Source: Chloroflexota bacterium
Lineage (GTDB): Bacteria; Chloroflexota; Anaerolineae; Epilineales; SHYO01
DNA: 35,295 bases
Reading direction: 5' to 3'
Assembly (NCBI GenBank): GCA_009692745.1
Contig: SHYO01000027.1
Location: 1-35,295, forward strand
A model generated the notes under the pieces. The model did not search any database. It was not told where the DNA came from and saw only the letters and a program-made list of their open reading frames with translations. Below are positions 10,976-35,141 of this stretch, piece after piece (within the stretch, counting starts at the first letter, position 1; each line of letters opens with the position of its first letter). The position numbers and the translations under genes were made by a program.

Positions 10976-13900
10976 ATGGCGGCGTCAGAACGCGTCCATT
11001 ACCTGAGTAAGACCCTCGGGCGAATGCTGGACTATAGCCTGGGCAGACAAGTCATGACTCTGCTGGGCCTGGCCTTGTTGCTGGTCCTGATAGGCTTCAC
11101 GGCCAGCGCAACCTATTTTGTCCATGTCACTGAGGAAATAGCCTGGCAAGGCCGCCAGGGCGAAGCCGCCCGGAACGCTGCCGGAACAATGGCCGCCGTC
11201 ATCTCCCGCGCCCGGGATACCCTGGGAATCGTGGCCCTCCTCAATGCCGACGAATTGAAATCGAATCGGGAAGAGTTGGCCCATTTGCTTGAGCAGAATC
11301 CGACTTTGGAAGAAGTGGTTCGCCTGGATGGCAATGGCCAGATGTTTGTCAACGCTCATCGCCATCGTGCGGTGCTGGCGGAGCTGATCACCATTCCACA
11401 ATCGCGCTGGTTCCTGGATGCCAGGAGCGGCCGGCCCTATCTCGGCCCGGTCCAGTTGTCTTTTAATGAGCAACCCTATGTGCTGATGGCGATCCCAACG
11501 GCGGATGGCGGGGTGGCGGCAGCGCGGGTGCAAATCAATGTGCTGTGGCAGTCCGTCGCCGACATCCGGTTTGGCGTGAGCGGGCGGGCGTATGTTGTCG
11601 CTCGAGAGGGCGACATCGTAGCCCACACGAATACAGAGGTGGTGCTCGCCGGTATCAACATCGCCGGGCGGCCCGAACTGCAAGCCCTGTTAGCCGCCCC
11701 CAACGCCGAATGGCACGGCGAGTACACAAATTTCCAGGGAATCCGGGTCGTGGGGGCGACCGCCCCGGTTCCCAACACCGGCTGGATAGCCATTACCGAA
11801 CTGCCCGAGACCGAGGCCTTTGCCGCCAGCCGGGTAGCCCTGCTGATGCTCGGCGGCGGGTTACTGATTTTCATGGCGGTGACGATGTTGAGCGTCGCCC
11901 GATTGGTTGAGCGTTTGGTTGTCGCGCCCATGGGGCAGTTGCGCGACGGGGCCATTCGCATCGGCCAGGGCGATCTAAACCACCGCATCCGCCTTATCCG
12001 CCAGGATGAAATCGGCCAGTTAGCCCAGGCCTTTGACGAGATGGCCGGCCACCTGGACGAGCGCAACCGGCAAGTGGCGGCGCAGACTGCGGCCCTGGTA
12101 ATCAGCGAAGCGCGCTACCGGGCCATTGTCGAAGATCAGACCGAGCTGATCTGCCGCTTCAAACCGGACAACACGCTCACGTTCGTCAATGAAGCCTACT
12201 GCCGTTATTTCGGGCGGACGCGCGAAGCGCTGCTGGGGAATAGCTTTGTGCCCCTCATCCCGGCGGAGGATCAGCCGATGGTGATAGCACACATGGCGTC
12301 CCTGGGGCCGCAGAATCCGGTGACGGAGATGGAACATCGGGTGGTACGATCGGACGGCGCTGTTCGCTGGCAGCATTGGACGGATCGCGCGATCCTGGAC
12401 GCTGTTGAAGGGCAGATCGAGGAGATTCAAGCCGTCGGGCAGGATATCACTGAACGCCGAGCGGCGGAAACGGCTCTGCGAGCCAGCGAGGCAAGTCTAC
12501 GGCGGATCACGGACAATATGTTCGACGTGATCAGCCAGATCGACACGGCGGGCGTCATCCAGTATGCCAGCCCATCCCACAAGTGGATACTGGGCATTGA
12601 GCCGGAAGAGGCCATTGGCCAGTTCATCTTTGAACGCCTGCATCCGGACGATATGACCGGGGCCCTGGAGGCGTTTGCTGAAGCACTCAACAGCGGCGAT
12701 ACCCGCAAGACAGTGACCTTTCGCTATCGTCATGCTGATGGTCACTACGTGTGGCTGGAAGCTGCCGGGAACATGATTGTCGATTCGCAGGGCGTGATGT
12801 CGAGCGTTATCCTGAGCAGTCGGGATATTACCGCCCGCAGGCAAATGGAGAGCGCGCTCCGCGAGAGTGAAAACCTCTACCGGCTGCTGGCGGAGAATGC
12901 CACCGACCTGATCTGGATGCGCGACATGAATTTGCGCCTGACCTATATCAGCCCTTCCGTTTATAAGTTGCGTGGCGTTACGGCAGAAGCGGCGCTGACT
13001 CAGGGACTCACAGAAATTCTCACCCCGGAGTCGACTGAAGCGGCGCTGAACTTCTTCGCCAGCATGCTGGTCGCAGCGCAATCCGCCTTGCCCGACAACC
13101 TCCGGAGCCAGTCACGCCGGCTCGAATCGGAACTGCTCCGCCAAGATGGCTCGACGGTCTGGACTGAGTCGGTGATGACTTTCCTGTTGGACGAGCAGGG
13201 CCAGCCCAGCCAGATCCAGGGGGTCACGCGTGACATCTCTGAGCGGCGGCACGCCGCCGAGGAATTGCGCCGCCTGAATCTGGAGCTTGAGGATCGAGTC
13301 TTGCAGCGCACGGCCGATCTCATGCGCGTGAACGAAGAGTTGACGGCGGAGGTCGCCGAACGCCAAAGGGCGGAAGCCGCCCTGCGCGAGAGCGAGGCGC
13401 GCCTGCGCCGGGTCACCGATAACATGCTGGACATGATCGCCCAAACGGATGAGCAGGGCTGCTATGTGTACGTCAGCCCCTCTCACAAACCGATCTTGGG
13501 CTACGAGCCGCAAGAATTATTGGGCCGACCCATACTGGAAACCATCCACCCCGACGATGCGGCACTGGCGTACGCAACGGCAACGACGGCGTTCAATGCT
13601 GCTGCGCCGGCACGGATGGAATTGCGCTTTCGGCACGCTAGCGGGCGCTACATCTGGCTCGAGTCGGTTGGCAACCCCTTGTTTGACGATCAGGGTCACG
13701 TGGTTGGCTCGATTATCGGCAGCCGCGATGTCACCGCGCGCAAAGCCGCCGAGGCGCAATTGGTACAACTGAGACAGGCCGTGGATAATTCCAGCGAGGC
13801 CATTTTCATGACCGATCGGGAGGGTGTGATCATCTTCATGAATCCGGCCTTCACTCGGCTCTACGGTTACCCTGCGGCGGAGATCATTAACCAGGCGACG

Positions 13901-14764
13901 CCGCGCATCTTAAAGAGCGAGGTCCAAGGGCAGAGCACTTATGAGGATCTGTGGCAGACCATCCTGAGTAAAAAAGTGGTGGTTGGCGAAATGGTCAACC
14001 GGGCCAAGGATGGCCGGCTGTTGACCATTGAATCAACAGTAAACCCTATCGTGGATGAACGCCAGGTCATCACCGGTTTCCTGGCCATCCAGCGAGACAT
14101 CAGCCAGCGCAAGCAGACCGAGGAACAGATCAAAACCTCGCTGCGCGAGAAAGAAGTGCTGCTGAAGGAAATCCACCACCGGGTGAAGAACAACCTGCAG
14201 ATCATCTCCAGCCTGCTGCATCTGCAATCCAACACGACCAGGGACCCTCAAACGTTGGAGTTATTGCGCGACAGCCAAAATCGGGTCAGGTCCATGGCCC
14301 TGGTACATGAGAAGCTCTACCGCTCCCCCGACCTGGCCCAGATCAGCTTAGCCGAGTACGCGCAGAGCCTGGCCGCCCAGCTATTCCGGACGTATTCAAC
14401 GGCGGCCGGGGCGGTGGTGCTGCAGGTGAAGGTTGAGGACATCTGGCTGGATGCGGAGGCGGCAGTCCCGTGCGGCTTGATCATCAATGAATTGGTGTCC
14501 AACGCTCTGAAGCATGCCTTTCCGGACGGGCGAGAGGGCGAAATCGGCCTGATTGTCCGCAACGGGACTGGCGACCGCATCGTTATGCAAATCAGCGACA
14601 CCGGCGTTGGTTTTCCGCCGGGCTTCGATTTCCGCACCTCGCCCTCGCTGGGCCTGAAACTGGTCAACACGCTGGTAGACCAGCTTGGCGGAACATTGGA
14701 GTTGGAGCGCGGTGCGGGAACGATCTTCCAAATCGAATTCACCAATCCGGCGCGCTACGGTTAA
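10976..14764 (+). CDS. Membrane sensor histidine kinase: Cache-like sensor, HAMP, multiple PAS/PAC, HisKA_2, HATPase
   Basis: Starts directly after the previous stop (TAG|ATG). Two TM segments bracket a sensor domain, then HAMP, several PAS repeats, 'LLKEIHHRVKNNLQIISSLLHLQS' (HisKA_2), 'LIINELVSNALKHAFP' and 'ISDTGVGFP' (HATPase). Confidence 0.92.
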   Translation: MAASERVHYLSKTLGRMLDYSLGRQVMTLLGLALLLVLIGFTASATYFVHVTEEIAWQGRQGEAARNAAGTMAAVISRARDTLGIVALLNADELKSNREELAHLLEQNPTLEEVVRLDGNGQMFVNAHRHRAVLAELITIPQSRWFLDARSGRPYLGPVQLSFNEQPYVLMAIPTADGGVAAARVQINVLWQSVADIRFGVSGRAYVVAREGDIVAHTNTEVVLAGINIAGRPELQALLAAPNAEWHGEYTNFQGIRVVGATAPVPNTGWIAITELPETEAFAASRVALLMLGGGLLIFMAVTMLSVARLVERLVVAPMGQLRDGAIRIGQGDLNHRIRLIRQDEIGQLAQAFDEMAGHLDERNRQVAAQTAALVISEARYRAIVEDQTELICRFKPDNTLTFVNEAYCRYFGRTREALLGNSFVPLIPAEDQPMVIAHMASLGPQNPVTEMEHRVVRSDGAVRWQHWTDRAILDAVEGQIEEIQAVGQDITERRAAETALRASEASLRRITDNMFDVISQIDTAGVIQYASPSHKWILGIEPEEAIGQFIFERLHPDDMTGALEAFAEALNSGDTRKTVTFRYRHADGHYVWLEAAGNMIVDSQGVMSSVILSSRDITARRQMESALRESENLYRLLAENATDLIWMRDMNLRLTYISPSVYKLRGVTAEAALTQGLTEILTPESTEAALNFFASMLVAAQSALPDNLRSQSRRLESELLRQDGSTVWTESVMTFLLDEQGQPSQIQGVTRDISERRHAAEELRRLNLELEDRVLQRTADLMRVNEELTAEVAERQRAEAALRESEARLRRVTDNMLDMIAQTDEQGCYVYVSPSHKPILGYEPQELLGRPILETIHPDDAALAYATATTAFNAAAPARMELRFRHASGRYIWLESVGNPLFDDQGHVVGSIIGSRDVTARKAAEAQLVQLRQAVDNSSEAIFMTDREGVIIFMNPAFTRLYGYPAAEIINQATPRILKSEVQGQSTYEDLWQTILSKKVVVGEMVNRAKDGRLLTIESTVNPIVDERQVITGFLAIQRDISQRKQTEEQIKTSLREKEVLLKEIHHRVKNNLQIISSLLHLQSNTTRDPQTLELLRDSQNRVRSMALVHEKLYRSPDLAQISLAEYAQSLAAQLFRTYSTAAGAVVLQVKVEDIWLDAEAAVPCGLIINELVSNALKHAFPDGREGEIGLIVRNGTGDRIVMQISDTGVGFPPGFDFRTSPSLGLKLVNTLVDQLGGTLELERGAGTIFQIEFTNPARYG

Positions 14765-14828
14765 AGCAACCGAAATATGTTCAGGCGGCATCAACGATAG
14801 TTGGACCTGAGAGAAAAAGAGGTCAACA

Positions 14829-16934
14829 GTGGCAAACGCCCGCATTATGATTGTCGAGGATCAAAATATCATCGCCATGGATTTGGAGAGCCGCTTGACC
14901 AGTCTGGGATACCTGATCCCGGCGACGGTGGCTTATGGCGAAGAAGCCATCACCCGGGCGGGCGAGCTCATGCCCGACCTGGTGCTGATGGATATTATGT
15001 TGAAAGGGGCAATAGATGGAGTGCAGGCTGCCGACCAGATCCGCCAGCAATTCGGCCTGCCCATCATCTACCTCACCGCCCATTCCGACAACCGGACGCT
15101 AGAGCGAGCCAGGCTCACGGAGCCTTACGGTTACATCCTCAAGCCATTTGAAGACCGGGAATTGCATCTTACGATCGAGATAGCGCTGTACAAGCACCAG
15201 ATGGAGAAGCAGCTCAGGGAACATGAACGCTGGCTGGCCGCTGTGCTCAAGGGAATGGGTGATGGCGTCATCGCCGCTGATGTGCAGGGCAATATTCAAT
15301 TCGTCAACCCCGCCGCCGAAGCCATGACCGGCTGGTCCCATGCGGAGGCCCAGGGACGGTCGGTGGCTGAGATATTCAACGTCGTGCATGCCCACACTCG
15401 TGCTCGCATCGATAACCCAATCCACCAGGCTCTCGAGCGGCAAGAGGTGACCCGGCTGCCGGAGCAGGCGCTCCTGATCGCCCGCGACGGGCGCGAAATC
15501 CCGGTGGACGACAGCGCCGCCCCTATCCGTAGCCAAGAAGGGCTCCTCACTGGCGCCGTGCTGATATTCCGAGACGTTACCGAGCGCAAACGCGCCGAAG
15601 AGCAACTGCGTCACCTGGCCTATCACGACACCCTGACGGGATTGCCCAACCGGTCCCTCTTCCAAATCCTGGTCGGCCGGTCGCTGGCGGATGCCCAGCG
15701 CCACGAGCGGCTCGGCGCTATCCTATTCCTGGACCTGGATCGCTTCAAGAACATCAACGACACCCTGGGCCACGCCACAGGCGACCAGTTGTTAAAAGCA
15801 GTCGCTGCGCGTCTCACCGGCGTCCTGCGTCAGAACGACACGGTCGCCCGTATCGGTGGTGATGAGTTCACCATCCTCATCGAAGAAATCGAACAGCCAC
15901 AGGATGCCACACTCGTAGCTGAGAAACTACTGAACACGCTGGCCGAGCCGTTTGACCTGGCCGGGCAAGAGCTGTTTGTGAGCGCCAGCATCGGCATCGG
16001 GATTTTTCCTACCGACGGGCAAAACCTCGATGTCCTGCTGAGAAACGCCGACACGGCCCTGTATCGCACCAAAGAGCAGGGCCGGAACGGCTACACCTTC
16101 TACCAGCCCGAGATGAACGCTACCGCGCTGACCCGACTCGCTCTGGAGAACGACCTGCAGCGGGCATTGCAGCGCGGGGAATTCGTTCTCTATTATCAGC
16201 CCAAGGTGACCCTCGATACCGGGCGTATTCTCAGCGCCGAGGCGCTGTTGCACTGGCAGCACCCGGAGTTGGGCCTGACCCCACCCGAACAGTTTCTGAG
16301 CATCGCCGAAGATACCGGCCTGATCCTACCGATCGGCGAATGGGTGCTGCGCACGGCTTGCCGCCAAGCCAAAGCCTGGCAGGCGGCCGGCCTGGCCCCA
16401 TTGCGCGTCGCCGTGAACTTTTCGAACCGCGAGTTCCGGCGGCCAGATATGGTGGCCCTGATTGAGAAAATACTGGCTGAGACGGGCCTGCCGGCCAGCG
16501 CGTTGGAAGTGGAGTTCCTTGAAACCGTTGTTATGAAGGATCGGGACAATTCGATGGCCAAGTTGCAGGCGCTCCGGCAGATAGGAGTGTTTGTATCAAT
16601 TGACGACTTTGGCATCGGGTATTCATCTTTAGAATACATTCGTCAGTTCCAAATTGACGGGCTTAAGATTGACCATTCCTTCGTCAGCCGGGCTCACGCA
16701 GACAAAAGGGACGAAGCGGTCGTGAGAGCGATCGTTGCCCTGGCGCACAACTTAAGTATCCGGGTAACGGCGGAAGGAGTGGAAACGCTAGAGCAGTACG
16801 AGTTCATGAAGACCTGCCTATGCGATGAAGCGCAGGGTTTCTATTTTGGTCATCCCATGGCGCCGGACGTATTTATGCGCTTCATGAAAAAGGGCAGCGG
16901 AATGTTGAACACGAACTCAGGCGCCAGACCCTAA
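14829..16934 (+). CDS. Response regulator REC-PAS-GGDEF-EAL (c-di-GMP synthesis/hydrolysis)
   Basis: REC (MIVEDQNIIAMDL, LVLMDIML, LTAHSDN, ILKPF), PAS, RIGGDEF with upstream RQND (RxxD I-site), EAL domain (SAEALLHW, DDFGIGYSSL, LKIDHSFV, AEGVETLEQ). Confidence 0.93.
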   Translation: MANARIMIVEDQNIIAMDLESRLTSLGYLIPATVAYGEEAITRAGELMPDLVLMDIMLKGAIDGVQAADQIRQQFGLPIIYLTAHSDNRTLERARLTEPYGYILKPFEDRELHLTIEIALYKHQMEKQLREHERWLAAVLKGMGDGVIAADVQGNIQFVNPAAEAMTGWSHAEAQGRSVAEIFNVVHAHTRARIDNPIHQALERQEVTRLPEQALLIARDGREIPVDDSAAPIRSQEGLLTGAVLIFRDVTERKRAEEQLRHLAYHDTLTGLPNRSLFQILVGRSLADAQRHERLGAILFLDLDRFKNINDTLGHATGDQLLKAVAARLTGVLRQNDTVARIGGDEFTILIEEIEQPQDATLVAEKLLNTLAEPFDLAGQELFVSASIGIGIFPTDGQNLDVLLRNADTALYRTKEQGRNGYTFYQPEMNATALTRLALENDLQRALQRGEFVLYYQPKVTLDTGRILSAEALLHWQHPELGLTPPEQFLSIAEDTGLILPIGEWVLRTACRQAKAWQAAGLAPLRVAVNFSNREFRRPDMVALIEKILAETGLPASALEVEFLETVVMKDRDNSMAKLQALRQIGVFVSIDDFGIGYSSLEYIRQFQIDGLKIDHSFVSRAHADKRDEAVVRAIVALAHNLSIRVTAEGVETLEQYEFMKTCLCDEAQGFYFGHPMAPDVFMRFMKKGSGMLNTNSGARP

Positions 16935-25157: not shown

Positions 25158-25356
25158 CTGCATGGGGTATACCGAGACAGAATCCTTCAAAACCACCTTG
25201 GGATACCTCAAGTGATATCTATGATATGTCGGTGGTGCAGGCATTGGCTCAAATGCTCGGAAAAAACTGAATAGAGTAAGGCAATTGGCACCATATCAGG
25301 TTCCGATAGCATTATACTCGGTTATTTCCCTGTCCACTCAATCGGGAGAAGCTCAG
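25158..25356 (+). repeat. Copy 1 of ~199-bp imperfect direct repeat
   Basis: Aligns without gaps to 25425-25623 (offset 267 bp). Conserved blocks ctgcatgNggtat, cctcaagtgatatctaYgata, gtgcaggcattggctcaRatgctcgg, actgaata, ccactMaatc; divergent middle. Confidence 0.85.
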
Positions 25357-25424
25357 TTTTCTCATAGCCTCTTTTCTATCTTATTTTCGCCCATTTTCCT
25401 GTTCAGTTTTTGGGGTCCACCATA

Positions 25425-25623
25425 CTGCATGTGGTATGTCGGGACAGGATTCGGAAACACTATCTTGGAATTCCTCAAGTGATATCTACGATACCGCAGT
25501 AGTGCAGGCATTGGCTCAGATGCTCGGTAGATACTGAATATGGCGTGGTATCTGACGGTATTCAAGCTTTCAACTGCAACATTCTCCTTTACCTCTCCCT
25601 CCACTAAATCAGGGGGAGCTCAC
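25425..25623 (+). repeat. Copy 2 of ~199-bp imperfect direct repeat
   Basis: As copy 1; its right end overlaps the 3' end of the SIR2 gene (25609). Confidence 0.85.
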
Positions 25624-26409
25624 AGATAAGGTTTGAAGAAACTTTAACAAAGATACTGTCCGATCGTTAGCTATGTTTTCTATCTTGATAGCATGGATTC
25701 CTCGTTCGCGTAGGTCGTCACCTTTCAGCGGATCAATTTCGAAATGGATTGAAAACCCCCATCTTCTGAGCCTGCCAAAATCCAAACCGATCCGATCCCA
25801 GATCTGGTTAAAAAAAGGGTCTTGAAGACTATAGCCCAGGAAAAGAGGACTCATACTTTCCAGATTTGTGCGAAGTCGCTCAACTAACCGTGGGTGGGTA
25901 GCAAAATAGGTGTTGAAATCACGCTGGGTGATGACAATACTTTCAGGTCTTTGAAGGTCACCACACAGTTTAATTATTTGTATACGCTCTGAACTCCAAA
26001 AGGCTATTTCCGGATCGCTCACGATAATATTTGATTGGCGGCCTATCTGTACTAAGGCTCTCTCGATTAGGTCATCATAATTAGTTGTAAAAATAGTACT
26101 TATAGGAAATGAGCCTATAAGCCGATGGACCGCAGTTGGCTGTTTTTCGCCAGAATCCAAAGTCTCTCGAAGATATCTGATGAGTGCATTACGACCGCAT
26201 TGGTTCTGATAGTGCTGAGCGATAGAGAGTAGGTAGTCTGGAGTAAGATCGATTTCCTCAATGGGCCAACGGGCACCAATATCTTGGGCTAATGGATGGA
26301 TGAGATTTACCCAATCAGGAAAACCCGCGCCAATTGAAAGGCCGGCTCCGACGAAAAGAACAACATTCCCAATTTTGAGTTGCTGAGCCAATTCGTCGGA
26401 GAAATTCAT
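25609..26409 (-). CDS. SIR2-like domain protein (stand-alone, defence-type)
   Basis: 266 aa from ATG at 26409 with GGAGGAAAG RBS; VVLFVGAGLSIGAGFPDW, TIFTTNYDDLIERAL, PLFLGYSLQDPFF. The usual LHG histidine is Cys (KLCGDLQRPESIVIT). Confidence 0.85.
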   Translation of the reverse strand: MNFSDELAQQLKIGNVVLFVGAGLSIGAGFPDWVNLIHPLAQDIGARWPIEEIDLTPDYLLSIAQHYQNQCGRNALIRYLRETLDSGEKQPTAVHRLIGSFPISTIFTTNYDDLIERALVQIGRQSNIIVSDPEIAFWSSERIQIIKLCGDLQRPESIVITQRDFNTYFATHPRLVERLRTNLESMSPLFLGYSLQDPFFNQIWDRIGLDFGRLRRWGFSIHFEIDPLKGDDLRERGIHAIKIENIANDRTVSLLKFLQTLSVSSP

Positions 26410-26701
26410 TCTTTCCTCCAAATTGTGATTTTGGGATTTTATGCAAACTAATATTATCACTTCTAGGCAATATGAGCTGTGTGATTTAGAATGCGGTTGA
26501 AAAATAATCAAATTCACGAAGGCATTGCCAATTATTTCGGGAACAAAAACACCCTCTATGCAAAAACCTGGTGATTACGGCTGAAACTCGGATCATTTCG
26601 AGAAATCGCAGTATACTATCAGGATCATCTCTATGAATCACAAATATTTAGAAAAATTGGACTTCTTTTTAGAATTATAATGGACCCCACCAAGCGAAAA
26701 C

Positions 26702-26848: not shown

Positions 26849-27883
26849 TCAATTATCGCGCACGTGAATCTTATTCTGCTCTCTTACGGACCGATTAATG
26901 GCATCAATCAATTCAATCGTACCTAAATTACTCCTTCCATCTGAAATAATAGGACTTCCGGTCCTTATACCTCGCAAGAAATCTTCGAAAGGTCTCCAAT
27001 GCTCAGGTAGATCAGTAAACACAATTTCTTGAACATGGCCTTCCGTAGACTCCTCAATAAGGATTGGAGGTTGAATAGATCGCTTAGGCTGAAAACGACG
27101 AGTAAAGATATTACTTCGAGATCCATATATCGATAATTCCTCTTGAACAGAATTGGCAGGGGCTTCGTACGAAACCGTCAGACTGACAAGAACATGGGGC
27201 TCAAATTCGGCCAATATAGCAACACTCTGTTCTACGTGTTTGATGCCGGATGTTAAGGCGTCAGCAAATACCCAACACAATGGCCTATCTAATAGCCAAA
27301 CTAACATATCTGCGGCAAGGTGTCCTATGTCAATCATAGCGCCACCACAATTTAAATCAGAATCTCCACGCCAAGACTGGGCATAATTGTACCAGGGACT
27401 GCTCGCAAAAAGATAATTCACTAGTTTGATCTCCCCCATTCCGCCTTCCGCTATTCTAGCTTTGATATGCCGATAGGGGCTTTCATATCGGCGTTGGTTC
27501 CCAACTGCTAGTTTTAAACCCTTTAATTCAGCGAATTCCACTAGTGCTTGCGCATCTCTAAATCTGCAAGAAATAGGTTTATCCACCAATACGTGTTTAC
27601 CTGCCTCGAGGCATGTTTTTACTTGGTCAAAATGGAAGCTATGAGGCGTGCTCACAATTACTGCATCAATGTCAATAGTCGCAAGCATTTCCGCTAAATC
27701 ATGAAATAGCAAAGGTCGAGAGTCAAATCCTGCCTTAGTTATTAATTCCGTTAGCTCAGGTAGTCCAAGAATGTCGCAAACCGCACTTAGCTCAATTTCA
27801 GAATGAGTCTTAAAGTACGGAATATAAGCTCGCCTTACATAGGCGCTATAACCGATAATGCCAATTTTCATCGCCATACTCAA
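26849..27883 (-). CDS. Gfo/Idh/MocA family oxidoreductase
   Basis: 344 aa; KIGIIGYSAYVRRAYIPYF, DAVIVSTPHSFHFDQVKTCLEAGKHVLVDKPISC (nucleotide-binding fold and DKP/EKP motif). Exact start among TTG/ATG options uncertain. Confidence 0.93.
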   Translation of the reverse strand: MSMAMKIGIIGYSAYVRRAYIPYFKTHSEIELSAVCDILGLPELTELITKAGFDSRPLLFHDLAEMLATIDIDAVIVSTPHSFHFDQVKTCLEAGKHVLVDKPISCRFRDAQALVEFAELKGLKLAVGNQRRYESPYRHIKARIAEGGMGEIKLVNYLFASSPWYNYAQSWRGDSDLNCGGAMIDIGHLAADMLVWLLDRPLCWVFADALTSGIKHVEQSVAILAEFEPHVLVSLTVSYEAPANSVQEELSIYGSRSNIFTRRFQPKRSIQPPILIEESTEGHVQEIVFTDLPEHWRPFEDFLRGIRTGSPIISDGRSNLGTIELIDAINRSVREQNKIHVRDN

Positions 27884-27934
27884 TCTTCCTTTAGACCGAC
27901 TAACAGCAACTCAAAGTGAATGCGATGACGTCTC

Positions 27935-29191
27935 TTACTGATTATTAATTGTTGTGAGACAGCTCAAGACAGCTGCATCCATTGCTGCCAATGTATCGTC
28001 TACATCTTGTTTGTTGTGCTCCAAACAGATAAAGCTAGGGTGGTTTGCTAATATTAAGACTCCATGTCGTGCTAGTTCATTGATTAGGGATGACTTCAGA
28101 TTCTGTGCCCTTTCTGAATGCTGGTGAAACCATAGCGCTGGCATACAAGGCCAACGGTACGCTACAGCCTGAATATCTTCTATCAACCTGTACCGGTTCA
28201 GAATCTCATTGGTACCGTCAATCAGCTTCTGTCCTAATTCCCATAACCGAGTAATGCTCCCTGATCTTTCGAGGATCGAGATTGTCTTTAAGGCTGCTGC
28301 GATAGAAACCAGTTCATTATTATAGGTCCCCATTATCCTGGCAGATTGAATTAGACCCATGATTTTGGGTTGCCCGAGGACGACAGCCAATGGAAAACCA
28401 TTTGATATGGCCTTACTCAAAACGGTTATGTCAGGTTTTATGTTGTACAGCCCTTGGACACCATTCAAGCTCACGCGAAAACCCGTCTTAATTTCATCTA
28501 AGATCAATAAAGCACCTTCTTCCTCAGTAAGCTTGCGTAATTGCCTGAGATTTTCTTCGAACGGTTCTCTAAGTTGAATGGGGTCTAGAATTAATGCAGC
28601 GACAGAGGGACGGTGTGCCTGAAAAAGGTCGGCTAATTGTTGAAAGTCCTCCCCATCCCAACTGACTACTAGCGCTGCTGTAGGGTCCTGAGGTATGCCA
28701 GGAATATAGCGTGGGGGAAAGGGATCAGCCTCAAAGAGGTGCCATGAGGTGTAAGGAGATATGAAGGCATCATGCCAACCATGGAAACCGCAACGAAAAA
28801 TAGTGGCTCTACCTGTAAACGCACGTGCGAGACGGATAGCCGCAGAAATCGCCTCAGAACCAGTCTTCATAAAAAGGCAACAATCTGTATAAGGAAAGAT
28901 ACGTTTCAGAGTCGCATTTAACTGATAATGCAGCGTAGTATATGAGGGGAAGATGATACCTAACTCTAATTGTTGAATGACTGCCTGGTTGACCTCTGCG
29001 TTGCAGTGGCCAATGATAATAGGCCCATATCCGCAGATGTAGTCAATGTAAGTCTGGTCGAATTGATCCCAACATCGTCCACCATGGCCTCGCACAATGA
29101 ATCTCCCTGGCAAACCCTGCAGCGCCGAAAGTACGCCACCTGGCAAGGTAGGAGAGGGATTGGTCAGATCCATACGGCTTTGAATACTCAC
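27935..29191 (-). CDS. Class-III PLP-dependent aminotransferase (glutamate-1-semialdehyde aminotransferase-like)
   Basis: 418 aa; FMKTGSEAISAAIRLARAFTGRATIFRCGFHGWHD, LILDEIKTGFR, DITVLSKAISNGFPL (PLP lysine). GTG start overlaps the upstream stop (GTGA). Confidence 0.92.
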   Translation of the reverse strand: MSIQSRMDLTNPSPTLPGGVLSALQGLPGRFIVRGHGGRCWDQFDQTYIDYICGYGPIIIGHCNAEVNQAVIQQLELGIIFPSYTTLHYQLNATLKRIFPYTDCCLFMKTGSEAISAAIRLARAFTGRATIFRCGFHGWHDAFISPYTSWHLFEADPFPPRYIPGIPQDPTAALVVSWDGEDFQQLADLFQAHRPSVAALILDPIQLREPFEENLRQLRKLTEEEGALLILDEIKTGFRVSLNGVQGLYNIKPDITVLSKAISNGFPLAVVLGQPKIMGLIQSARIMGTYNNELVSIAAALKTISILERSGSITRLWELGQKLIDGTNEILNRYRLIEDIQAVAYRWPCMPALWFHQHSERAQNLKSSLINELARHGVLILANHPSFICLEHNKQDVDDTLAAMDAAVLSCLTTINNQ

Positions 29192-29736
29192 TCTTCACCT
29201 TCTTCGAGTACCTCATAATAAGGTCGGTTTCCATATCTATCTTGATACGTCCTCCGAGCACCTATTGTTGATTTACTTAGTTCATCCTCTTCCTTTTTCT
29301 GGAGTTCACTAAGAGTGAATTCATGTAAAGATTCAGTTTTGCCCGGTTCGCCAATTTCCGGTTTACCTTTCTTGATCCGGCATAGAAAAGAAACAATCAC
29401 CCAATTTTGCAGGCCATGGTCTTGCTCATAGAATTCAACCTGGCGAATTTCAAACAAGCGATCGACCACAATCTCAAGTCCTACAGCTTGAGCAGACAAT
29501 TCCTGATCAATCTCCTCCCGTAGCTCTTGAAGTAAATCCTCCCGGTCCCCAAGGCTCCCGCCAACCCCTTCCAGCTTGCCTATTTCATCCCGGCTATGAG
29601 GACCTCGTTTTTGAAGTAAGATTTTTCCTTCCGGCGTAAAGATAAGTGCTTCGACAGCTATGCGGAATCCCGGCTTGTGATAGCCAATCTTCCTCAAGTG
29701 GTCTAGCACTTCGGCCTTAGTTCTCATCATTTTCAC
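29188..29736 (-). CDS. Nudix-like hydrolase with non-canonical Nudix box
   Basis: 182 aa, GTG start with AGGAGGTG RBS; GFRIAVEALIFTPEGKILLQKRGPHSRDEIGKLEGVGGSLGDREDLLQELREEIDQEL. Confidence 0.8.
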   Translation of the reverse strand: MKMMRTKAEVLDHLRKIGYHKPGFRIAVEALIFTPEGKILLQKRGPHSRDEIGKLEGVGGSLGDREDLLQELREEIDQELSAQAVGLEIVVDRLFEIRQVEFYEQDHGLQNWVIVSFLCRIKKGKPEIGEPGKTESLHEFTLSELQKKEEDELSKSTIGARRTYQDRYGNRPYYEVLEEGEE

Positions 29737-29774: not shown

Positions 29775-32700
29775 TTAATCCCACGCATGCCTGCTAAGTC
29801 TAGGATAGATATCCCTTAGCGTCTCTTGGAGATAGTGGAAGGCCTCCTTGCCTTTAGGCAAACGCACAAAAACGCCGCTCCCTTTTTTTAAACCTGTACA
29901 GATCTGGGAGTCAGCGCTATGTACTACGAAAGCATAATAAGAAGTCAAAGGAAGTTTTTGCATAGTCTCAAATTGCGCTATACCTTTAATAAAAGCAATA
30001 TCTGCTGATCGGAGTACTTCTTGAAGCTTATTAGAGCAAAACAAAGGTTCAATTGCCGACCGAGAACTTTCCTCGAGGAATAAACTAAATCTAGTAGAGT
30101 GGGAAAGGTCGTGAAAAATTGGATATTCCAAGCATTTTTTTAGAGTTGACTCATTTGCATTATTTGCCACGACGCGAGAGCTTACTACTCCGGTGACTTT
30201 TAGCTTAGGATTCTGGCTTATTAAACGTTGAATTAGAGCTAAGTCCCATACCAACTCTCCGTTATCGCCAAACATAAAAACCATGTGACATTCTTTTGAC
30301 AACGTTTCTTTCAAAAACTGATTTCTATCATCAAATTCCAGTTTTCCCATAGGAGTAAATTGCTCTTCAAGGCTATCACCTTGACTATGCCACCATACTG
30401 TCCCTGAGAATACCTCATACTCAATCAATCTATTGAGATCCAATGACTTCGATGATTGGAAACCTTTCATGGCACGATCATTTGCTTCATATCCTGTGAT
30501 TAAAAGACGGTCAACACGTGCCAGGTCGTAGCAATCCAGGACCATATATATTAATGCATCGAGGTCGTTGTCGGCGAGATCTCGCCACAATTGGCGGGAT
30601 TGATTCACTTCAGTAGAAAGAAGAACAGCTACCACTTCCATCAAATTCTGCGCATTTTGATAATATTGATTGGCCGTAGAACCAGCGCTCAATTTTTCTT
30701 CTACCGCAAGCTTAATACGAGTATCCTGGTAGAGGAGGTTATATTCAAACTTGCTCTGTGGAACCTTATCCATGATAGGGAGTGATCGATCGATAGGTGC
30801 ATTCCTCTCCGACATCTTTTTGGGAAAGAGCTTCTCAATCATTCGGGTATTTATATCCGATGAAAAAATAGAAGCATAGGACTTGAGTTCTTGATCGGCC
30901 TCTGCCTGAGAACACACTCGATCAGTATATTTTGCATATATGTCAGCAAGTGTGGCTGGGTAAGTCTTGATTGGGAGCGTACCCTTGATAAGAATAGGTC
31001 GGTGGATTCGCAATACACGGAACCCCGTATCATCATACCGATTTACTGAAAGGACACAGTCCCGGTAGGCAGAGCGATGAGCCCGTGCTTGGTCGTGCCA
31101 CCCGCCTCCACGCCGATATCGATATTTTGAGTCGAGTGCCTCTATATGGTTCGCCTGCTTCAGATCCGACGTATACTTGTCAACACCATAATTCTGGACC
31201 CATTCCCAAATATTTCCATTCATGTCTATCACCCCATCATGTGTGATATCTAATGGGAAGAGACCTATAGGAGCAAGATGGCGCAATCCAGAATAATCAT
31301 TATGGATTTTATCTCCCAAATCTTGGGGTGGCATGTTACCAAAGATATATCTCATGTAATGAGACTGGCCTCGCCTGATTACGTATTCCCATTCGGCTTC
31401 AGTTGGCAAACGATATATCATTTCATCATCTCTGCGAGATAACCAATTGCAGTACGCCTGTGCTTCATACAAGCTTACATATACAACGGGACAATTGGGA
31501 TAGGAAAGCTGCTCGTCCCAACGATTAGGAGACAGAATCTGGCGTTGCTGCCTCCATTCCCAACCGTCAGGATCCCATAGGAATTGATCCTGATATCCCC
31601 CGTCTTCGACAAACAGCGCAAATTCCTGAACTGTCAAAGGATATTTTCCAATCTCAAATGAAGCAGAGAAAACTTGGTGTACTGGTTGCTCATTCTGTTC
31701 GGAAAATTCGTCGTAGTTGGAATGTAATATATCTTTGTTCTGTGATCCCAAACAAGCGACACCGCCGGGAATTCTAACCCAATTCTTCTCTTGATTGAAC
31801 AACCGAGGATCACCGCCGCGTCCAAGTGCCACCGCGGCATCATAACGAGTTTGCAAATCAAGTGTTATTTCCGCAGGAGTGAAGATTTGCATAACCTGAT
31901 CCCTAGCCTCCAGGTACTTGCTAACGCGGTAAACAGAGTAGTTATATATGAAGATATCTTGAAGCACAAACCCTAGGAACCCGACAACCTTCGCTGTTTC
32001 CGCAAGAGATTTATCCTTTCGCGAATTAAGGACAAGATTAACAAGCAAGTCGATTCTATCATCTCCCAATCGATGTAATATAGCCGGAAAAAAACGTAGT
32101 ACTTCGCGCCAATCTGCACTAAATAGATGTTTCTTAATGATACTCCACCAACTTTTCCTGCCACTATCCGTCATTGAAGCAATCTTACAGGCCGCAAGAT
32201 ACTCTTGAAATGATGTGTGCCAGAAAGAGATATTTCCTATTCCACGACGAATAATAATACCCGTCGCTATCTCATCTTGCTCAAGGAATTCCTGAGCTTG
32301 CTGGATTTTATCTTCTTTATCTGATCCATCAAAGTTGAGGGCTATCTGTTCTGCTGCCCACCTTAGTCCAACTCGCGTGAGCCTACCTTTCTGATGAAGA
32401 AACATTGACAACGCCAATGTTTTATAACAGTTCTCTCTGAATTCTTTGTTCTTGTGGCTATGCATAGAATAGCGGGCGCGAATCAGCCAGTCAATTACAG
32501 CCTCATACAAGTCTGCTTTGCCTTCCGGAAGCTTTGGCTGGTTCCAATGGACGAGGATGATCGAGGTAAGCATTACCGGGTTACGGGCTAGGAGATTAAC
32601 ATCACGACGCAAACGTATCGTATTTAGTAGTTCCCGTTCGTATTGGTCTGCCTGAAGAGAGTTTGTTCTGCCGTAATTTGGATTGCTATAGAACAATAAG

Positions 32701-34214
32701 TTTACCCAGGCGCTGATGAACGTATGTATCTCTTTATCACTCAGAGTGTCAATCACAGAAACCCTAAAATCCATAGGAATAGATATATTTTGTAAGACAC
32801 CTGGCCGGCTAGTGACAACCCAACTGCACTTTGACCACTCTTTGACACTACTATCAATTATCTCTACTATCTGGATACGGGCCTCCTCGCTGGGTAACTC
32901 GTCCAGGCCATCAACCAGGAAAAGAACTTGTCCTGACTTTAGCTTGCCCTGAAGCCAAGCATCCGTAAATCCCCAACCATGTGTTGTGGATTGCCCGATC
33001 CAAAAGCTAATTAGCACATGCCAAGACGGGCCTATGTCTCGAGATCTCGTTAAATGGAAATCGTAAATATCTGCCGCCCGCGTGAGCAAAGGCAAAGGAA
33101 AGCTGGTATTATCTACCATGATCCTAGCCAGGTAGCTAAGAAAAGTCGTTTTTCCTGCTCCTGGGTCACCAAGGAGCAACGTCAAACGGTTCTTTTTAAC
33201 CACATCTGTCAAAGGGATCCTTCTTGTACCCCCCTGTAATTCAGTCTCTGCGCCTTCAAGAGAAATTACTTCGTGCGCATGTAGTTGCATGTACAACTCA
33301 AGCAGCGGGAACCGCTGTGCTTGTACTGCGCCTCGTGCTGCAAGACCCCTAATATCAATATATCCGGTAAAGTCACGTAACCATTCACGGTAGATATTCT
33401 CATTAACCGGAGGGGATATGATTCGATCTTTGTTTAATCTTGGAAGCTTGATGCTGAATGCTTGTAGCCAATTTAGGATAGTTTGATTTTTATTATTATC
33501 AGCAGTTAGTTCGATAGCCATCAATCCTTTTTGCCTCAGATCCTTGACCTCCAATTTTTTTGCATCAAAAATTATTATGTAATGGTTTCGACGGAGAGGA
33601 TCTTCATGCGGTCGTATATAATCAAGAATCCCCAATAGCCTTTCGTCATTGGGTTCAAAGCCTATAAAAAGGGCTGTTTTCTTTGTTAAAGTATCAATTA
33701 GCAGATTTGCCAGTTTCTCATGATTGTTAAAATACTGGTGATATTCATCTCGTGTAATGACTAGACTCTCTGGTCGATCCAAGCGTCCGTGAAGATAGAC
33801 CAACTGCAAGCGATCTTCTTCCCAAAAATGGATATCGGTGTCCGTTATAATAGTGTAATATTTGCGGTTTACATTTCTCAAAGCTTCTTCCAGTAAACTA
33901 TCATGGATACTAGCAGCAATAATCATTGAGGCAGGTAGGTTTACCAAAACGTTATGCAAGTCTGATGGGTACTTACCTGACGCATCAAAGAAATCACGCA
34001 CACGAGTCCTCAGTGCATTTTTCCCATATTCATATTCATAGAATTGCGCTATCATTTGAGGTCTTTTCTCGTCAGGTATACCAAGTGTAGAACCTAGTTG
34101 GTCCTTCAATTCCGCCCAACACGGCAATCCTGCCATTTTCTGCAGATCTGGTCCTAAGAAGATTATTGCCTTACCTGAAGCGAATCCATCAATTAATTCA
34201 AGAGGAATGTTCAT
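29775..34214 (-). CDS. Multidomain STAND-type protein: SIR2-like - NACHT NTPase - FGE/SUMF1 - probable DUF89/ARMT1-like C-terminus
   Basis: ~1479 aa (start preferred at ATG 34214 with TGAGGT RBS; ORF track start 34244). SIR2-like region with LVYLHGRLDRPESLVITRDEYHQYF; Walker A LLLGDPGAGKTTF, Walker B VLFLVDGLDELP; FGE region (WVRIPGGVACLGS...YPLTVQEFALF...YRLPTEAEWEYVIRRG...DMNGNIWEWVQNY...YRRGGGWHDQARAHRSAYR...DDTGFRVLR); C-terminus FMFGDNGELVWDLALIQRLI...LRSADIAFIKGIAQFETM, DUF89-like. Confidence 0.85.
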   Translation of the reverse strand: MNIPLELIDGFASGKAIIFLGPDLQKMAGLPCWAELKDQLGSTLGIPDEKRPQMIAQFYEYEYGKNALRTRVRDFFDASGKYPSDLHNVLVNLPASMIIAASIHDSLLEEALRNVNRKYYTIITDTDIHFWEEDRLQLVYLHGRLDRPESLVITRDEYHQYFNNHEKLANLLIDTLTKKTALFIGFEPNDERLLGILDYIRPHEDPLRRNHYIIIFDAKKLEVKDLRQKGLMAIELTADNNKNQTILNWLQAFSIKLPRLNKDRIISPPVNENIYREWLRDFTGYIDIRGLAARGAVQAQRFPLLELYMQLHAHEVISLEGAETELQGGTRRIPLTDVVKKNRLTLLLGDPGAGKTTFLSYLARIMVDNTSFPLPLLTRAADIYDFHLTRSRDIGPSWHVLISFWIGQSTTHGWGFTDAWLQGKLKSGQVLFLVDGLDELPSEEARIQIVEIIDSSVKEWSKCSWVVTSRPGVLQNISIPMDFRVSVIDTLSDKEIHTFISAWVNLLFYSNPNYGRTNSLQADQYERELLNTIRLRRDVNLLARNPVMLTSIILVHWNQPKLPEGKADLYEAVIDWLIRARYSMHSHKNKEFRENCYKTLALSMFLHQKGRLTRVGLRWAAEQIALNFDGSDKEDKIQQAQEFLEQDEIATGIIIRRGIGNISFWHTSFQEYLAACKIASMTDSGRKSWWSIIKKHLFSADWREVLRFFPAILHRLGDDRIDLLVNLVLNSRKDKSLAETAKVVGFLGFVLQDIFIYNYSVYRVSKYLEARDQVMQIFTPAEITLDLQTRYDAAVALGRGGDPRLFNQEKNWVRIPGGVACLGSQNKDILHSNYDEFSEQNEQPVHQVFSASFEIGKYPLTVQEFALFVEDGGYQDQFLWDPDGWEWRQQRQILSPNRWDEQLSYPNCPVVYVSLYEAQAYCNWLSRRDDEMIYRLPTEAEWEYVIRRGQSHYMRYIFGNMPPQDLGDKIHNDYSGLRHLAPIGLFPLDITHDGVIDMNGNIWEWVQNYGVDKYTSDLKQANHIEALDSKYRYRRGGGWHDQARAHRSAYRDCVLSVNRYDDTGFRVLRIHRPILIKGTLPIKTYPATLADIYAKYTDRVCSQAEADQELKSYASIFSSDINTRMIEKLFPKKMSERNAPIDRSLPIMDKVPQSKFEYNLLYQDTRIKLAVEEKLSAGSTANQYYQNAQNLMEVVAVLLSTEVNQSRQLWRDLADNDLDALIYMVLDCYDLARVDRLLITGYEANDRAMKGFQSSKSLDLNRLIEYEVFSGTVWWHSQGDSLEEQFTPMGKLEFDDRNQFLKETLSKECHMVFMFGDNGELVWDLALIQRLISQNPKLKVTGVVSSRVVANNANESTLKKCLEYPIFHDLSHSTRFSLFLEESSRSAIEPLFCSNKLQEVLRSADIAFIKGIAQFETMQKLPLTSYYAFVVHSADSQICTGLKKGSGVFVRLPKGKEAFHYLQETLRDIYPRLSRHAWD

Positions 34215-34526
34215 CGGTACCTCATTTTCTTTAAAGATGGACACAAAGCACTTGCAGACTGTGAATTACTATGGGGTCGGTTGTCCTACCTTTTTTAGCC
34301 AGCAGGCGAGAATTGTTATAGATCAAGAATCCTAGAATGGCTTTTCCCCGACAAATTGAAGGGTTACTTAAGCCTAAGGTAGACCTGCTCATAGATGTTT
34401 GGACTGTGATACTAAAGGCACAATACTGCCGCTGGCGATTGTAGCAACCATCGATAGGACACAGCTTTCTTCTGCTTTTGGAGTATATCGCTTATCTCTA
34501 TTTCTACTAAACAAGGGGCAGTCCAC

Positions 34527-35141
34527 TCAACTCACATCATATATCTCTTTCATCGGTTCAGTGTATGGAAAGTGAGATTCCTTTTCGAGGTTCAAATTCT
34601 GCTTTCGTAGCTTGCTACGCACCCAAAACTGCTGCAAAAACCAAATTGTGACGAATGCAACAACACCTATAATCAGTGCCCAAAACTGATCTTTCGAAGA
34701 GAAATAGAGATAGGTCACCACCAAAACAATTGCAGTAAAGGAGACGCTGTTTATAGTGGTCAATATTCCGTCGCTTCCACGTTGGGCGAGATAAGATAGA
34801 CTCAGTTCCACCCTTGGTCTGTCATCGCGTGGCGGAAATGCGACATATGAAGCAATAGCTTTGTTTTGGTCTTCAAACCATCTTCTGACTCGTCCTGCCC
34901 TTCGGTAAAACACGACTATCGAGACAGAATACTCTACAACCTGGTTCAAGGTCGTTAGAGCTAACAAAAAAACGGCGAGAAAAATTAGAAGCAAACCCGG
35001 AGCCCCAATAGGCTGAAACTTCTCAATAAGTGTGGGCAATACCGTTATAGTTGCTGCTACAACAATGAGAAAGAAATTAACTCGGTTGGTTTTGAGTTCT
35101 TCATAATCAGACGCACGTTGTTGCAAGGCATTAAACTCCAC
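34527..35141 (-). CDS. Predicted 4-TM membrane protein of unknown function
   Basis: 204 aa; hydrophobic segments NFFLIVVAATITVLPTLI, GLLLIFLAVFLLALTTL, FTAIVLVVTYLYF, FWALIIGVVAFVTIWFL. GTG start with weak RBS. Confidence 0.7.
   Translation of the reverse strand: MEFNALQQRASDYEELKTNRVNFFLIVVAATITVLPTLIEKFQPIGAPGLLLIFLAVFLLALTTLNQVVEYSVSIVVFYRRAGRVRRWFEDQNKAIASYVAFPPRDDRPRVELSLSYLAQRGSDGILTTINSVSFTAIVLVVTYLYFSSKDQFWALIIGVVAFVTIWFLQQFWVRSKLRKQNLNLEKESHFPYTEPMKEIYDVS

What the first reader, a model, noticed from the sequence alone, without database searches (positions are those of the whole stretch)
29775..34214. Giant SIR2-NACHT-FGE protein with a DUF89/ARMT1-like C-terminal domain: candidate novel defence effector architecture
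Seen: one minus-strand ORF of ~1479 aa containing a SIR2-like N-terminus, a complete NACHT NTPase (GDPGAGKTT, LFLVDGLDELP), an FGE/SUMF1-type domain lacking the active-site cysteine pair of genuine sulfatase-activating enzymes, and a ~230-aa C-terminus with DN-x-GE-V-D and ADxxFIKGxxxFET signatures reminiscent of DUF89/ARMT1 metal-dependent phosphatases. Established: SIR2 fused to STAND/NACHT modules is a recurrent antiphage layout (NAD+-depleting effector, NTPase switch, C-terminal sensor), and FGE/C-lectin folds can be ligand-binding. Inference: adding a phosphometabolite phosphatase-like domain to a SIR2-STAND protein would be unusual; it may act on an NAD-derived or nucleotide-sugar product, or be a second sensor.
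Basis: partly seen in the sequence, partly recalled or inferred. Interest (0 to 1): 0.9.

Follow-up and report, generated by a model that had tools for sequence, protein, structure and literature searches.

The report
SIR2-NACHT-FGE immune sensor with DUF89-like tail
A large bacterial protein built like an anti-virus alarm (switch plus sensor) carries an extra tail derived from a metabolite-phosphatase fold, a join not seen in the relatives searched, but key catalytic residues of both its front end and its tail are changed, so it probably works as a sensor or scaffold rather than as the double enzyme first suggested.

Summary
One minus-strand frame (29775-34214 from ATG, 34244 from GTG) encodes a ThsA-like SIR2_2 domain, NACHT, an FGE/C-lectin domain without the FGE cysteine pair, and a 405-aa tail. 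The last ~170 residues of the tail are truly DUF89/ARMT1-like: 62 bits against an 80-member profile, versus at most 4.5 for 2000 shuffles; an AlphaFold model's first 18 PDB hits are all DUF89. It resembles the 290-aa archaeal/bacterial DUF89 type, not ARMT1 proper.

DUF89's D/N/D metal triad (80/80 in relatives) reads G/D/N here (or D/N/N with a gap). The SIR2 lacks GAGxS and the catalytic Asn, keeping His. SIR2-STAND-FGE layouts recur in the class, and STAND-FGE is published; the DUF89 tail was found fused to a STAND protein nowhere else searched.

The gene lies in a low-GC island with a second SIR2 gene that keeps GAGLS and TTNYD but has Cys for His. Most likely: a STAND immune sensor whose pseudo-SIR2 recruits the second SIR2 protein, with the tail as an added sensing or regulatory domain. 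New variant of a known kind, from one MAG.

The parts
29775..34214 (-). SIR2-NACHT-FGE-DUF89-like protein, 1479 aa from ATG (1489 aa from GTG at 34244)
   Evidence: open frame; domains by Pfam
33447..34184 (-). SIR2_2 (ThsA-like) domain, residues 21-266; GAGxS replaced by GPDLQ, TTNYD by ASIHD, His of LHG kept
   Evidence: PADLOC ThsA 4e-30; PDB ThsA 6.5e-18; motifs
32706..33188 (-). NACHT NTPase core, residues 353-513, Walker A GDPGAGKTT and Walker B LFLVDGLDE intact
   Evidence: Pfam PF05729 4e-9
31008..31790 (-). FGE/SUMF1 C-lectin-fold domain, residues 819-1079, no FGE cysteine pair
   Evidence: Pfam PF03781 2e-43; PDB EgtB/PvdO/FGE matches
30345..30992 (-). helical region between FGE and the DUF89-like lobe, residues 1085-1300; no sequence match; two helices modelled well (pLDDT ~80), the rest poorly
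29835..30338 (-). DUF89/ARMT1-like lobe, residues 1303-1470; GDNGELVWD, VANNANEST, ADIAFIKGIAQFE
   Evidence: Pfam PF01937; profile 61.8 bits; fold
34527..35141 (-). upstream small membrane protein, weak SLATT/8xMP match, a kind often seen in conflict loci
   Evidence: Pfam 8xMP 2.5e-5 under cut-off; SLATT_1 2.3e-4 under cut-off
29188..29736 (-). NUDIX protein, 38 bp after the giant gene
   Evidence: Pfam PF00293 9.7e-9
27935..29191 (-). class III aminotransferase, start overlaps the NUDIX gene
   Evidence: Pfam PF00202 5e-50
26849..27883 (-). Gfo/Idh/MocA oxidoreductase
   Evidence: Pfam PF01408 2e-21
25609..26517 (-). second SIR2_2 protein (SIR2b); GAGLS and TTNYD kept, HG replaced by CG
   Evidence: Pfam PF13289 1e-25; motifs

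Best explanation
It is a STAND-type immune sensor. NACHT is the ATP-driven switch and the FGE/C-lectin domain the invader sensor. The DUF89-like tail is a phosphatase-fold domain that has lost its standard metal site and serves as an extra ligand- or protein-binding sensor or regulatory cap. The N-terminal SIR2 domain is a pseudo-enzyme that, when the switch oligomerises, recruits a catalytic partner by SIR2-SIR2 contact, most likely the SIR2 protein at the other end of the island, which would then cleave NAD+ and stop growth. Shown: domains, lost motifs, island, two SIR2 genes. Inferred: immune role, pairing, NAD+ cleavage, role of the tail.
For: Domains. SIR2-STAND-FGE recurs (L167, L177: SIR2-nSTAND1-FGE) and the NACHT-FGE core is 33% identical over 816 residues to a Thiodictyon protein with another N-terminus and no tail. 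PMC8195603 describes STAND-FGS proteins with swappable N-terminal effectors and paired adaptor genes, one on the NTPase and the rest on effectors. The giant's SIR2 lacks GAGxS and TTNxD, while SIR2b keeps both. Degenerate SIR2 proteins lie next to a second SIR2 protein fused to a caspase (L169) or EAD7 (L177). In human FAM118A/B two SIR2 paralogues must join head to tail for NAD processing (PMC12700824). DUF89 fold with altered metal triad.
Against: SIR2b itself lacks the HG histidine (CG); Avs5 tolerates NG at this place but not Ala or Gln, and Cys is untested. In the L169 and L177 pairs neither SIR2 keeps the His. The two SIR2 genes here are 3.3 kb apart with metabolic genes between. No phage data; one example only.
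Confidence: 0.42

Rival explanations
1. One reading: the SIR2 domain is an NADase effector in cis and the tail an active DUF89-type phosphatase working on an NAD-derived or nucleotide-sugar product.
For: The SIR2 keeps the HG histidine and the Asp of TTNxD; the tail keeps GE, KG, AD and E of the DUF89 core; with a one-residue gap the DN pair aligns (sequence).
Against: GAGxS and catalytic Asn are gone; N110A and D112A kill Avs5 immunity (PMC12931631), N133A/H171A abolishes DSR2 activity (PMC11087589). The third metal Asp, 80/80 in relatives, is Asn1362; the DUF89 N-terminal CxxC, Lys, Asn and Asp invariants have no counterpart.
Confidence: 0.13
2. Gene fusion by proximity: a DUF89-like gene that led the NUDIX-aminotransferase-oxidoreductase operon became joined in frame to the STAND gene; the tail belongs to a small-molecule pathway, or is a passenger.
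For: NUDIX starts 38 bp after the giant and overlaps the aminotransferase. NUDIX and class III aminotransferase also sit together on Agrobacterium pAt1, and aminotransferase III, Gfo/Idh and NUDIX in one Streptomyces plasmid cluster, so the trio is metabolic. Tail codon usage is closer to the island genes (r 0.91) than to the body (0.80).
Against: No DUF89 gene next to those genes in the two plasmid clusters; altered metal site; the N-half of the tail does not match DUF89, so an intact former gene is not shown.
Confidence: 0.27
3. The protein is an ordinary STAND-FGE sensor and the tail a structural filler or decaying domain with no selected role, or the contig is a MAG chimera at the GC break near 25.2 kb.
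For: Single occurrence; MAG 83% complete with 2.6% contamination; GC falls from 0.6 to 0.43 at 25.0-25.5 kb.
Against: 405 codons open with coding bias and a conserved core motif set; codon usage uniform across the island. A chimera at 25.2 kb would not touch the gene itself.
Confidence: 0.18

Closest known systems
STAND NTPase-FGS (FGE) conflict systems (Kaur et al. 2021, PMC8195603; DGR-linked CLec sensors, PMC10907252)
   Same: NACHT/STAND core followed by an FGE C-lectin domain, swappable N-terminal effector or adaptor
   Different: Here FGE is not terminal: a 405-aa DUF89-like tail follows; no PF00078 reverse transcriptase found in the assembly
Avs5 (SIR2-STAND; PMC12931631)
   Same: N-terminal SIR2_2 (PF13289) on a STAND NTPase
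   Different: NACHT rather than nSTAND3 passes the cut-off; GAGxS and TTNxD missing; FGE plus DUF89-like C-terminus
SIR2-nSTAND1-FGE proteins in the same class (L167:7737-11111, L177:3790-7098)
   Same: SIR2, STAND, FGE in the same order, about 1100 aa
   Different: nSTAND1, not NACHT; end at FGE without tail
Thiodictyon syntrophicum WP_100923261.1 (plasmid pTs485)
   Same: NACHT-FGE core, 33% identity over 816 residues
   Different: N-terminus unlike SIR2 (phosphoesterase-like by eye, no Pfam match); no tail
DUF89/ARMT1 family PF01937, 290-aa type (PDB 2g8l, 2ffj)
   Same: C-terminal lobe fold and DNxGE / KG core
   Different: metal triad altered, N-terminal CxxC region absent, fused to a STAND protein
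ThsA / DSR2 SIR2 NADases
   Same: SIR2 domain homologous (E 6.5e-18 to ThsA)
   Different: catalytic Asn and GAGxS lost

Membership tests
STAND-FGE (FGS) conflict protein | STAND NTPase with Walker A/B | tested here: met
   Pfam NACHT 4e-9, GDPGAGKTT, LFLVDGLDE
STAND-FGE (FGS) conflict protein | FGE domain C-terminal to the NTPase | tested here: met
   PF03781 819-1079, but not at the end of the chain
STAND-FGE (FGS) conflict protein | DGR diversification (frequent, not obligatory) | tested here: inconclusive
   no PF00078 in the assembly, which is only 83% complete; TR/VR pair not searched
Avs5 (SIR2-STAND) | N-terminal PF13289 SIR2 on a STAND NTPase | tested here: met
Avs5 (SIR2-STAND) | GAGxS and TTNxD motifs | tested here: not met
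   GPDLQ and ASIHD against motifs in PMC12931631
Avs5 (SIR2-STAND) | nSTAND3 NTPase | tested here: not met
   nSTAND3 20.8 bits, cut-off 27.2; NACHT passes
DUF89/ARMT1 damage-control phosphatase | DUF89 fold and sequence profile | tested here: met
   26.6 bits over cut-off of 25, 61.8 bits own profile, PDB hits 1-18 all DUF89; model made with DUF89 rows
DUF89/ARMT1 damage-control phosphatase | metal triad D, N, D | tested here: not met
   80/80 relatives D/N/D; here G1326/D1327/N1362, or D/N/N in a gapped register
DUF89/ARMT1 damage-control phosphatase | metal-dependent phosphatase activity | not testable with these tools
   needs protein
Formylglycine-generating enzyme | active-site Cys pair | tested here: not met
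   only C1063 in residues 1040-1080 (sequence)
SIR2 NADase (ThsA, DSR2) | catalytic Asn and His | tested here: not met
   His kept, Asn lost

The most novel reading that the evidence does not exclude
A STAND immune receptor that uses a catalytically dead metabolite-phosphatase (DUF89) fold to sense a phosphometabolite altered by infection, and fires through a two-part SIR2 enzyme split between a pseudo-SIR2 on the sensor (His kept, Asn lost) and a separate SIR2 protein (Asn kept, His lost) at the end of the same island.
Probability: 0.12. Interest if true: 0.8.

Novelty: new variant of a known kind. Interest (0 to 1): 0.48.

Why it matters
STAND receptors are known to swap effectors and sensors, but none with a DUF89 fold was found here or in the literature searched. 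If the tail binds a phosphorylated metabolite, it would suggest metabolic sensing in a bacterial NLR-like protein. The wider point, that many SIR2 domains on STAND proteins of this class have lost Asn, His or both, matters for annotation: such genes are routinely called NADase effectors, and some may be adaptors.

Tried and rejected
Tail-only searches of genome contigs, viral contigs, plasmids and phages found no close relative. Tail search in 100 relatives and 400 phylum genomes found plain DUF89 genes at E 1e-4 to 1e-5, plus one short 80-residue match in the helical half (L011, 9e-4, not followed). Profile-guided GTDB scan: 67 loci, DUF89 frames of 258-465 aa, mostly about 290, none giant. 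Single-sequence AlphaFold of the last 205 residues was uninformative (pLDDT 41). The IKTY just after FGE resembles the MKTY start of DUF89 proteins and hinted at a fossil start; rejected because the N-half of the tail scores no better than shuffles. The 410-aa ARMT1-type profile does not match (1.6 bits). A NUDIX-aminotransferase-DUF89 operon elsewhere was looked for and not found. No reverse transcriptase; no tRNA in the window.
Full report
What is there. The minus strand from 34244 (GTG) or 34214 (ATG) to 29775 is one open frame of 1489/1479 codons. Pfam finds SIR2_2, NACHT and FGE well over cut-off and the ARMT1-like domain at 4.5e-5, just under the whole-protein cut-off; in a six-frame search of the genome the same stretch passes the cut-off (26.6 bits). 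The tail is coding: other frames are full of stops and shuffles never stay open.

Is the tail really DUF89-like? Yes for its last ~170 residues. A profile of class DUF89 proteins of the 290-aa type scores 37 bits, the 410-aa ARMT1 type only 1.6. With 80 proteins the score is 61.8 bits against at most 4.5 in 2000 shuffles and 6.4 in 1434 other ORFs. An AlphaFold model made with 51 DUF89 relatives has a confident C-lobe (pLDDT about 90) and its best 18 PDB matches are all DUF89 structures, led by 2g8l at 3.5e-9. The model was built with DUF89 rows, so the profile score is the more independent evidence. The first ~215 residues of the tail match nothing.

Is it active? Probably not in the standard way. 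D, N and D of the DUF89 metal site are 80/80 conserved; the giant has G1326, D1327 and N1362. A one-residue gap would restore D and N but not the third Asp. It keeps G1329, E1330, D1334, D1415, K1420, G1421 and E1426. A human DUF89 D291A mutant structure exists in the PDB (6umr, listed); from memory D291 is the residue matching N1362, and that it is ARMT1 is also from memory.

The SIR2 end. The domain is closest to ThsA but GAGxS reads GPDLQ and TTNYD reads ASIHD, while LHG keeps the His. In Avs5 GAGxS and TTNxD are described as characteristic of sirtuins, and N110A or D112A abolishes immunity; NG in place of HG still works (PMC12931631). In DSR2 N133 and H171 are the catalytic pair (PMC11087589). 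So the giant's own SIR2 is most likely not an NADase. The second SIR2 gene of the island (25609-26517) keeps GAGLS and TTNYD but has CG for HG.

Relatives. SIR2-nSTAND1-FGE proteins of similar layout occur in L167 and L177, SIR2-NACHT in L162 and SIR2-NB-ARC in L164, all without the tail. Many SIR2 domains on STAND proteins in the class lack Asn, His or both. Two loci pair a degenerate SIR2 protein with a second SIR2 protein: L169 (SIR2-TPR-kinase beside SIR2-caspase) and L177 (SIR2-nSTAND1-FGE beside SIR2-EAD7); L179 also has two adjacent SIR2 frames. The NACHT-FGE core is 33% identical to a Thiodictyon plasmid protein that ends at FGE and has a different N-terminus. This is the domain swapping described for STAND-FGS systems in PMC8195603, where one adaptor copy sits on the NTPase and others on effectors.

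How unusual is the join? PF01937 searches list the open frame of each hit: in 298 class genomes (124 with DUF89) and 400 phylum genomes, some shared, the only frame over 700 aa is this one. Plasmid, phage and viral scans found none. Literature searches for SIR2, NACHT and FGE-sulfatase together, and for DUF89 with NACHT, returned no paper; subscription papers are mostly missing from that library.

Setting. GC falls from about 0.60 to 0.43 near 25.2 kb and stays low to the contig end; codon usage of the tail matches the island (r 0.91) and not the host part (0.25). Other NACHT/FGE-related loci of the genome have GC 0.51-0.64. The island also holds a SLATT-like membrane protein, NUDIX, class III aminotransferase and Gfo/Idh genes. 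NUDIX and the aminotransferase are neighbours on an Agrobacterium plasmid and aminotransferase III, Gfo/Idh and NUDIX share a Streptomyces plasmid cluster, so they are probably a small-molecule module.

Mechanism. I favour a STAND sensor with pseudo-SIR2 adaptor and pseudo-DUF89 accessory sensor, with SIR2b as the likely enzyme; FAM118A/B in humans is a precedent for two SIR2 paralogues needed together (PMC12700824). The pairing, the NAD+ step and the role of the tail are inference. The main rival is a proximity fusion with the metabolic operon.

Verdict. Observation confirmed, interpretation partly supported, new variant of a known kind, interest 0.48 because the join is rare and testable but rests on one MAG and both proposed enzymes look disabled.

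Noticed in passing
window 25609-26517 (-): Second SIR2_2 protein in the island with GAGLS and TTNYD intact but Cys in place of the HG histidine; nearest homologue found (53%) is L160:3495-4736, which has Asn there, like Avs5.
   Followed up: partly
L169:629-3412 and L169:3416-5047: Adjacent SIR2-TPR-kinase (Asn and His lost) and SIR2-caspase (Asn kept, His lost) genes in a genome of the same order: possible SIR2-SIR2 adaptor pair.
   Followed up: partly
L177:3790-7098 and L177:7484-8884: SIR2-nSTAND1-FGE protein near a SIR2-EAD7 protein, again both without the HG histidine.
   Followed up: partly
window 25158-25622: Two tandem copies of about 198 nt, 71% identical, at the border where GC falls from 0.6 to 0.43; may mark the island's edge.
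   Followed up: no
window 26849-29736 and L185:6938-8726: NUDIX plus class III aminotransferase pair also present on Agrobacterium plasmid pAt1, beside a radical-SAM-like gene and class V aminotransferase; looks like a small-molecule pathway.
   Followed up: partly
L186:7275-10574: Thiodictyon NACHT-FGE protein whose N-terminus has GNHD and GHRH motifs of a calcineurin-like phosphoesterase, without a Pfam match.
   Followed up: no
window 10976-16934 (+): Host-part genes: 1262-aa dCache-HAMP-multi-PAS-HisKA_2 kinase followed by a receiver-PAS-GGDEF-EAL protein.
   Followed up: no
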